Origin: a virus
Virus record (IMG/VR): IMGVR_UViG_3300008108_003773
Span: 1 to 22,893 of that record
Strand: one strand, 5' to 3'
Length of the DNA: 22,893 nucleotides
The notes under the pieces were generated by a model. That model did not search any database. It was not told where the DNA came from and saw only the letters and a program-made list of their open reading frames with translations. Below are positions 13,386 to 14,389 of this stretch, piece by piece. The number at the start of each line of letters is the position of its first letter. Positions within the stretch are counted from its first letter, which is position 1. A program made the position numbers and the translations under genes.

Positions 13386-13947
13386 TTCTTGGAGTTTACT
13401 TTACGATACTATGTACGGACCTGAAGACGAAAAAGATTATCTAGAATGGAAAAAACTCTATTCTGGAACACATGAAAACTATGAACTGACTGCTGATGGA
13501 TTCCTTTGGGCAAAGTCAAATGACATCCCTCCAACAGACACTTCTACAAATATTTTTGAATATCCAAACGACACTTTAAACTTTAATTATCCTATTTCAT
13601 CTATGAGTGAAGATAAAATCGAATTGAACCTTAACAATACTAATGGTTTTTGGAAGTACGAAGAGGACAAAACTCTGAAAGAGATTGAGCAATATATTTC
13701 TAGTACATATCATTCTCACTATACTTCTGAACAATCCAAAACTCAAACTCTTGATTTGATTGAAAGTATTGGTGATGCCGAAGCATTTACCCGTTCAAAT
13801 GCAATCAAGTATCTTTCTAGGTTTGGTAAGAAGAATGGCAAATCAAAAATGGATATCCTAAAGGCAATTCATTACTGCGTTCTACTTTATCATTTCGCTG
13901 GACTTCACAAAAACACTTTATCAAAACCCAGAACTAGATTTTTCTAA
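13378..13947 (+). CDS. DUF3310 domain protein, 3' end probably replaced
   Basis: The 189-residue product, from ATG 13378 (the frame also reaches a TTG at 13372), has an unrecognised N-terminal half rich in Tyr, Trp, Asp and Asn and a C-terminal DUF3310-like domain (about residues 105-174). Its marks are an HYTS-type start, [21 protein letters not shown], a [17 protein letters not shown] segment, and a final hydrophobic helix. DUF3310 includes T7 gp1.7-like nucleotide kinases. The last residues (from about GLHKNT on) are Lys/Arg-rich and are the out-of-frame reading of gp45 DNA, so the true C-terminus appears to have been lost in the junction near 13905. It overlaps the pebS remnant by 8 bases. 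Confidence 0.68.
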
Positions 13948-13963
13948 TGAAGGGTATCTTAGT

Positions 13964-14389
13964 ATGAAAGAAGGTAAGATGCGCTCAAAATATTTCTTTG
14001 CTGATCCTAATATTATTATTGTTCCTCCAGATAAAGAAATTGTAGTTCCTTCCGAGGAAGTTACTTTTGATCTTGATACACAACAATTAAATAATTTGTT
14101 GAAAGCAGCAGCAATTTATCAACTTCCTGATTTTTGTGTTGTTGGTGAAGCAGGAGTAGTAAAACTAGTTGTTACTGATAAAAAGAATGATACCTCAAAT
14201 GATGTATCAGTAATTGTTGCTGAAACTGAAAACGAATTTAGTTTTAATTTCAAAGTTGAGAATATTAAGATTATTCCTGGTACTTATGAAGTTTCTATTT
14301 CTAAAAAGTTACTATCAAAGTTTTCAAGTAAGAATTACGATCTAAATTACTATATTGCTTTAGAACCAGATTCAACCTATGATGAATAA
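13964..14389 (+). CDS. gp45: Sliding clamp gp45, N-terminally truncated
   Basis: gp45 is the trimeric clamp that tethers the gp43 polymerase and activates late transcription with gp55. Only 141 residues are available from ATG 13964, against about 225 in the family (T4: 228). They match the second half: KYFFADPN, PPDKEIVVPSEE, LNNLLKAAAIYQLPDF, FKVENIKIIPG and the C-terminal strand. The same frame runs upstream as ...[17 protein letters not shown], which still looks like clamp sequence, up to about 13913, but then loses resemblance and meets a stop at 13859-13861. No start codon and no room exist for the missing 80-85 residues, so this copy cannot form a normal clamp subunit. Confidence 0.83.
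   Translation: MKEGKMRSKYFFADPNIIIVPPDKEIVVPSEEVTFDLDTQQLNNLLKAAAIYQLPDFCVVGEAGVVKLVVTDKKNDTSNDVSVIVAETENEFSFNFKVENIKIIPGTYEVSISKKLLSKFSSKNYDLNYYIALEPDSTYDE

What the first reader, a model, noticed from the sequence alone, without database searches (positions are those of the whole stretch)
13859..13964. Sliding clamp gp45 has lost its N-terminal third at a junction with the DUF3310 gene
Seen: clamp-like sequence begins near 13913 ([10 protein letters not shown]), but the frame has no start codon before ATG 13964 and is closed by a stop at 13859-13861. The DUF3310 C-terminal tail is the out-of-frame reading of this same clamp DNA. Known: gp45 is essential for T4-like replication and late transcription and is about 225 residues. 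gp44, gp62, gp55 and the clamp-binding tail of gp43 are intact here, so the phage still needs a clamp. A second, complete clamp gene elsewhere, a defective variant, or an assembly artefact must be invoked.
Basis: partly seen in the sequence, partly recalled or inferred. Interest (0 to 1): 0.8.

Follow-up and report, generated by a model that had tools for sequence, protein, structure and literature searches.

The report
Gapped phage contig, not shortened clamp
The sliding-clamp gene of this cyanophage contig really does lack its start in the given sequence, but near-identical contigs from other samples carry the complete gene, and the missing pieces surround DNA hairpins, so this is almost certainly a sequencing or assembly gap and not an unusual phage clamp.

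Summary
The clamp (gp45) frame is closed by TAA at 13859-13861, has no ATG/GTG/TTG before 13964, and starts abruptly at about 13914. It keeps 158 of 222 codons. The interpretation that the phage lacks or has shortened its clamp does not hold.

Two near-identical contigs from other metagenomes, L088 (98.1-99.7%) and L172 (99.5-99.9%), have an intact 222-codon gp45. Against L088 the window lacks 207 bp at 13914. L172 has intact gp45 but lacks 203 and 250 bp at other places in the same 0.9 kb.

All four joints are essentially blunt (0-1 bp microhomology). The only two hairpins with arms of 10 bp or more in L088 lie inside the window's two missing blocks (chance about 0.002). None of 214 clamp genes not cut by a contig end is broken. 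No phage record of 526 carries two clamp places.

Best explanation: assembly/library dropout at hairpins, closed without Ns. A real hairpin-driven deletion is the main rival. Low interest; useful as a warning.

The parts
12913..13190 (+). 5' part of pebS (ferredoxin-dependent bilin reductase), in frame up to the first joint
   Evidence: Pfam Fe_bilin_red; tblastn with S-SSM7 pebS residues 3-108
13190..13191 (.). First joint: 148 bp missing relative to the near-identical contig L088; 1 bp microhomology; missing block holds an 11-bp-arm hairpin
13191..13385 (+). 3' part of pebS, out of frame with the 5' part
13378..13947 (+). DUF3310 gene (ATG 13378); native up to about 13913, tail after that is out-of-frame clamp DNA
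   Evidence: Pfam DUF3310 E=1e-8; L088 copy has its own stop and a different tail
13913..13917 (.). Second joint: 207 bp missing relative to L088 (end of DUF3310 and first 64 codons of gp45); essentially blunt; missing block holds an 11-bp-arm palindrome
13914..14389 (+). gp45 sliding-clamp remnant (about 158 of 222 codons; first ATG at 13964)
   Evidence: Pfam gp45-slide_C; tblastn to 526 phage records
13859..13861 (+). TAA that closes the clamp frame upstream (lies in DUF3310 coding DNA)
   Evidence: direct reading

Best explanation
The window is a metagenomic contig of a T4-like cyanophage (Kyanoviridae type) that in nature has an ordinary, complete gp45. The contig carries two holes, 148 bp in pebS and 207 bp across the DUF3310/gp45 border, each around a strong DNA hairpin. 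Most likely reads were poor or chimeric at the hairpins, the assembly pieces stopped near them, and the pieces were joined edge to edge with no Ns. Shown: the holes, the intact siblings, the different holes in a third contig, the blunt joints, the hairpins inside the holes. Inferred: that the loss happened in library preparation or assembly and not in the phage, and the exact step at which it happened.
For: (1) L088 is 98.1-99.7% identical to window 11447-16416 and has full pebS (206 aa), DUF3310 (187 aa) and gp45 (222 aa, both Pfam clamp domains, end-to-end match to T4 gp45). (2) L172, 99.5-99.9% identical to window 10400-16379, also has full gp45 but lacks 203 bp (pebS) and 250 bp (pebS end/DUF3310 start) at other places in the same 0.9 kb; different holes in separate assemblies of one population are what dropout gives. 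(3) All four joints have 0-1 bp of microhomology against L088. (4) The only two hairpins with arms of 10 bp or more in L088 (loops of 12 nt or less) lie inside the window's two missing blocks, and the window itself retains none in 22.9 kb; random placement of two such blocks in L088 covers both hairpins with p=0.0017. L172's pebS hole contains the same pebS hairpin. (5) In 214 clamp genes of fetched loci not cut by a contig end, none is broken or short (first 83 loci). (6) The clamp is essential: T4 lacking clamp and clamp-loader genes could not propagate without a helper plasmid (PMC8121543). (7) Inverted repeats and palindromes are a reported source of chimeric library reads (PMC10908179).
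Against: No reads were available, so coverage and spanning reads are untested. Blunt joints without Ns do not fit a plain overlap-based joining error, so the exact technical step is unknown. L088 keeps both hairpins and L172 keeps the gp45 one, so the hairpins do not always cause loss. L172's DUF3310 hole contains no strong hairpin; a weak one (9-bp arms, 21-nt loop) ends at its edge. The hairpin link was noticed after the holes were known, so its p-value is post hoc.
Confidence: 0.86

Rival explanations
1. Real deletions in the phage population: hairpin-provoked deletions during replication produce defective genomes, which persist by coinfection with intact siblings, and the assembler happened to pick a defective molecule.
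For: Joints fall at hairpins; blunt joints could come from reads across real breaks; three contigs of one population differ in the same 0.9 kb.
Against: No direct repeats at the joints, unlike ordinary slippage deletions; a defective clamp would have to be the majority form in its sample; none of 214 other clamp genes is broken; the clamp is essential in T4.
Confidence: 0.09
2. The phage has a second, complete clamp gene elsewhere in its genome and this copy is decaying.
For: The contig is only a fragment of a genome of perhaps 170-230 kb, so the rest is unseen.
Against: 526 phage records have 526 clamp places, never two; the same locus is complete in near-identical siblings L088 and L172; neighbouring pebS is holed in the same way.
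Confidence: 0.02
3. The 141-residue product is a functional short clamp or a clamp with its N-terminal part supplied in trans.
For: The frame is open from ATG 13964 to the normal stop.
Against: No relative is short; the N-terminal domain is broken in the middle; no N-terminal piece lies elsewhere in the window; siblings have the full gene.
Confidence: 0.01

Closest known systems
T4/RB69 gp45 sliding clamp (PDB 1czd, 1b77; Pfam PF02916 + PF09116)
   Same: The complete copy in L088/L172 matches end to end (residues 1-221 on 1-227, E about 1e-25) and hits both clamp domains.
   Different: The window copy lacks the first 64 codons and the PF02916 match.
Cyanophage cobS-pebS-DUF3310-gp45-gp44 block (Synechococcus phages S-SSM7, S-BM3, Sf-FS3; Marine virus AG-345-L05)
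   Same: Same gene order and the same gene families.
   Different: The window has holes in pebS and at the DUF3310/gp45 border; the small genes between gp45 and gp44 are absent.
Hairpin/palindrome-related library artefacts (PMC10908179)
   Same: The trouble is placed at inverted repeats.
   Different: The paper describes chimeric reads in human DNA libraries; here the outcome is blunt holes in an assembled contig, so the link is by analogy.

Membership tests
T4-type gp45 sliding clamp | C-terminal clamp domain PF09116 | tested here: met
   E=2.3e-12
T4-type gp45 sliding clamp | N-terminal domain PF02916, so two domains per subunit | tested here: not met
   No hit in the window; met in siblings L088 and L172
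T4-type gp45 sliding clamp | Length about 220-243 aa with a start codon | tested here: not met
   Window 141 aa from ATG 13964; relatives 220-243
Assembly/library artefact | Near-identical contig from another sample without the defect | tested here: met
   L088 at both places, L172 for gp45
Assembly/library artefact | Defect differs between independent assemblies | tested here: met
   Window 148+207 bp, L172 203+250 bp at other positions
Assembly/library artefact | Depth drop or missing spanning reads at the joints | not testable with these tools
   No reads available
Repeat-mediated deletion (slippage/recombination) | Direct repeat or microhomology at the joints | tested here: not met
   0-1 bp at all four joints against L088; up to 4 bp at junction 2 only if one base difference is native to the window strain

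The most novel reading that the evidence does not exclude
Short coding-sequence hairpins in pebS and gp45 act as a deletion hotspot in vivo, so that this cyanophage population continually produces defective genomes lacking the clamp start, maintained by coinfection with intact siblings.
Probability: 0.07. Interest if true: 0.5.

Novelty: not a real feature. Interest (0 to 1): 0.12.

Why it matters
It removes a false claim of a clamp-less or short-clamp T4-like phage. It also shows that metagenomic virus contigs can hold blunt, N-free holes of about 150-250 bp around hairpins, which break neighbouring genes and can be mistaken for gene decay or gene fusion; the DUF3310 tail here is such a false fusion. 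Checking near-identical contigs from other samples exposes them.

Tried and rejected
Second clamp or separate N-terminal piece in the window: none. Strain chimera with the middle piece from another strain: at first suggested by 2 differences in 728 bp, but the differences in the flanks sit in two divergent patches (11561-11743, 15928-16088) and the rest is uniformly about 99.7% identical, so dropped. In-register recombination between imperfect repeats in the DUF3310 tail and clamp DNA (GGACTTCACAAAAAC / CTTTATCAAAAC): rejected, because both copies are present in full and the true joint is blunt. Conserved regulatory hairpin in gp45: the exact palindrome occurs only in this population among the loci fetched, and relatives use other codons. 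No paper held names the two sibling datasets. A paper search for truncated cyanophage clamps listed none in titles or abstracts. A last scan for further siblings over the right half of the window gave none above 95% DNA identity.

Full report
What the sequence shows. The window is the whole of one virus record of 22,893 bp. Its genes follow the T4-like cyanophage order: gp23 end, gp3, uvsY, uvsW, gp55, gp47, gp46, peptidase, cobS, pebS, DUF3310, gp45, gp44, gp62, regA, hsp20, gp43, uvsX start (the gp23 end is read from the ORF at the left edge). The clamp frame is closed by TAA at 13859-13861, has no ATG, GTG or TTG before 13964, and becomes clamp-like at 13913. Pfam finds the C-terminal clamp domain and not the N-terminal one. 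A second hole was not reported: the bilin-reductase gene pebS, two genes upstream of gp45, matches its relatives in two pieces that are out of frame with each other.

Relatives. In the 83 loci first examined, clamps not cut by a contig end are 220-243 aa. In the larger set, 214 clamp genes are not cut by a contig end and none is short or broken. 526 phage records contain a clamp match and each has exactly one place. A natural short clamp family and a routine second clamp are therefore not supported.

The decisive comparison. A search with the pebS start found L088 (IMGVR_UViG_3300008110_006574), and a search with DUF3310 found L172 (IMGVR_UViG_3300008107_006277). L088 matches window 11447-16416 at 98.1-99.7%. 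Outside two divergent patches (11561-11743 and 15928-16088) there are only about a dozen differences in over 4 kb. L088 holds 148 bp more at window 13190 and 207 bp more at window 13914, and its pebS (206 aa), DUF3310 (187 aa) and gp45 (222 aa) are complete. Its gp45 aligns end to end with T4 and RB69 gp45. L172 matches window 10400-16379 at 99.5-99.9% and also has the complete gp45, but it lacks 203 bp inside pebS and 250 bp across the pebS end and DUF3310 start. Outside window 13042-13917 the window and L172 align without a single gap. One population seen in three contigs thus has three different states of the same 0.9 kb.

The joints and the hairpins. Measured on L088, the four joints have 1, 0, 0 and 0 bp of microhomology. 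Junction 2 could have up to 4 bp if one base difference is native to the window strain. The two strongest hairpins of L088, each with perfect 11-bp arms and loops of 7 and 2 nt, lie at L088 1749-1777 and 2769-2792. Each sits inside one of the window's two missing blocks, and the first also sits inside L172's pebS block. They are the only hairpins with arms of 10 bp or more (loops of 12 nt or less) in L088, the window retains none, and about 0.15 with arms of 11 bp or more are expected in a random sequence of the window's size. Two random blocks of these sizes in L088 cover both hairpins with p=0.0017; this test was thought of after the holes were known. DNA folding energy ranks the same two places first.

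Mechanism. Loss at hairpins, with positions that differ between assemblies and with blunt joints of similar size (148-250 bp), fits dropout or chimeric reads at structured DNA followed by edge-to-edge joining of the remaining pieces. Inverted repeats and palindromes are a reported source of chimeric reads in sequencing libraries (PMC10908179). The technical step itself is inferred. A real hairpin-driven deletion in the phage is the main rival. It must explain blunt joints and a contig with a broken essential gene: T4 lacking its clamp and clamp-loader genes could not propagate without a helper plasmid (PMC8121543).

Verdict. The truncated clamp is present in the contig but is not a property of the phage lineage. 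Confidence in an artefact is about 0.86, and reads would settle it.

Noticed in passing
window 13190: pebS (bilin reductase) has a 148-bp hole that frameshifts it; intact in near-identical L088.
   Followed up: yes
L172 2643-2644 and 2918-2919: Sibling contig L172 has two other holes (203 and 250 bp) in pebS and DUF3310 while its gp45 is intact.
   Followed up: yes
window 11561-11743 and 15928-16088: Two short patches are strongly divergent from L088 while the rest is about 99.7% identical, suggesting small recombined tracts or end effects of the L088 contig.
   Followed up: partly
L109 4320-4345: pebS of another cyanophage contig has its own small frameshifting loss, so broken pebS copies occur more than once (2 of 85 relatives, the other being L172).
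   Followed up: partly
window 7793-8629: ORF that begins like a sulfotransferase (PFCGLPRSGSTLL), lying between gp46 and the peptidase gene; judged by eye only.
   Followed up: no
window 14390-14469: gp45 and gp44 are nearly adjacent, without the several small genes found between them in S-SSM7, S-SCSM1 and Sf-FS3.
   Followed up: no
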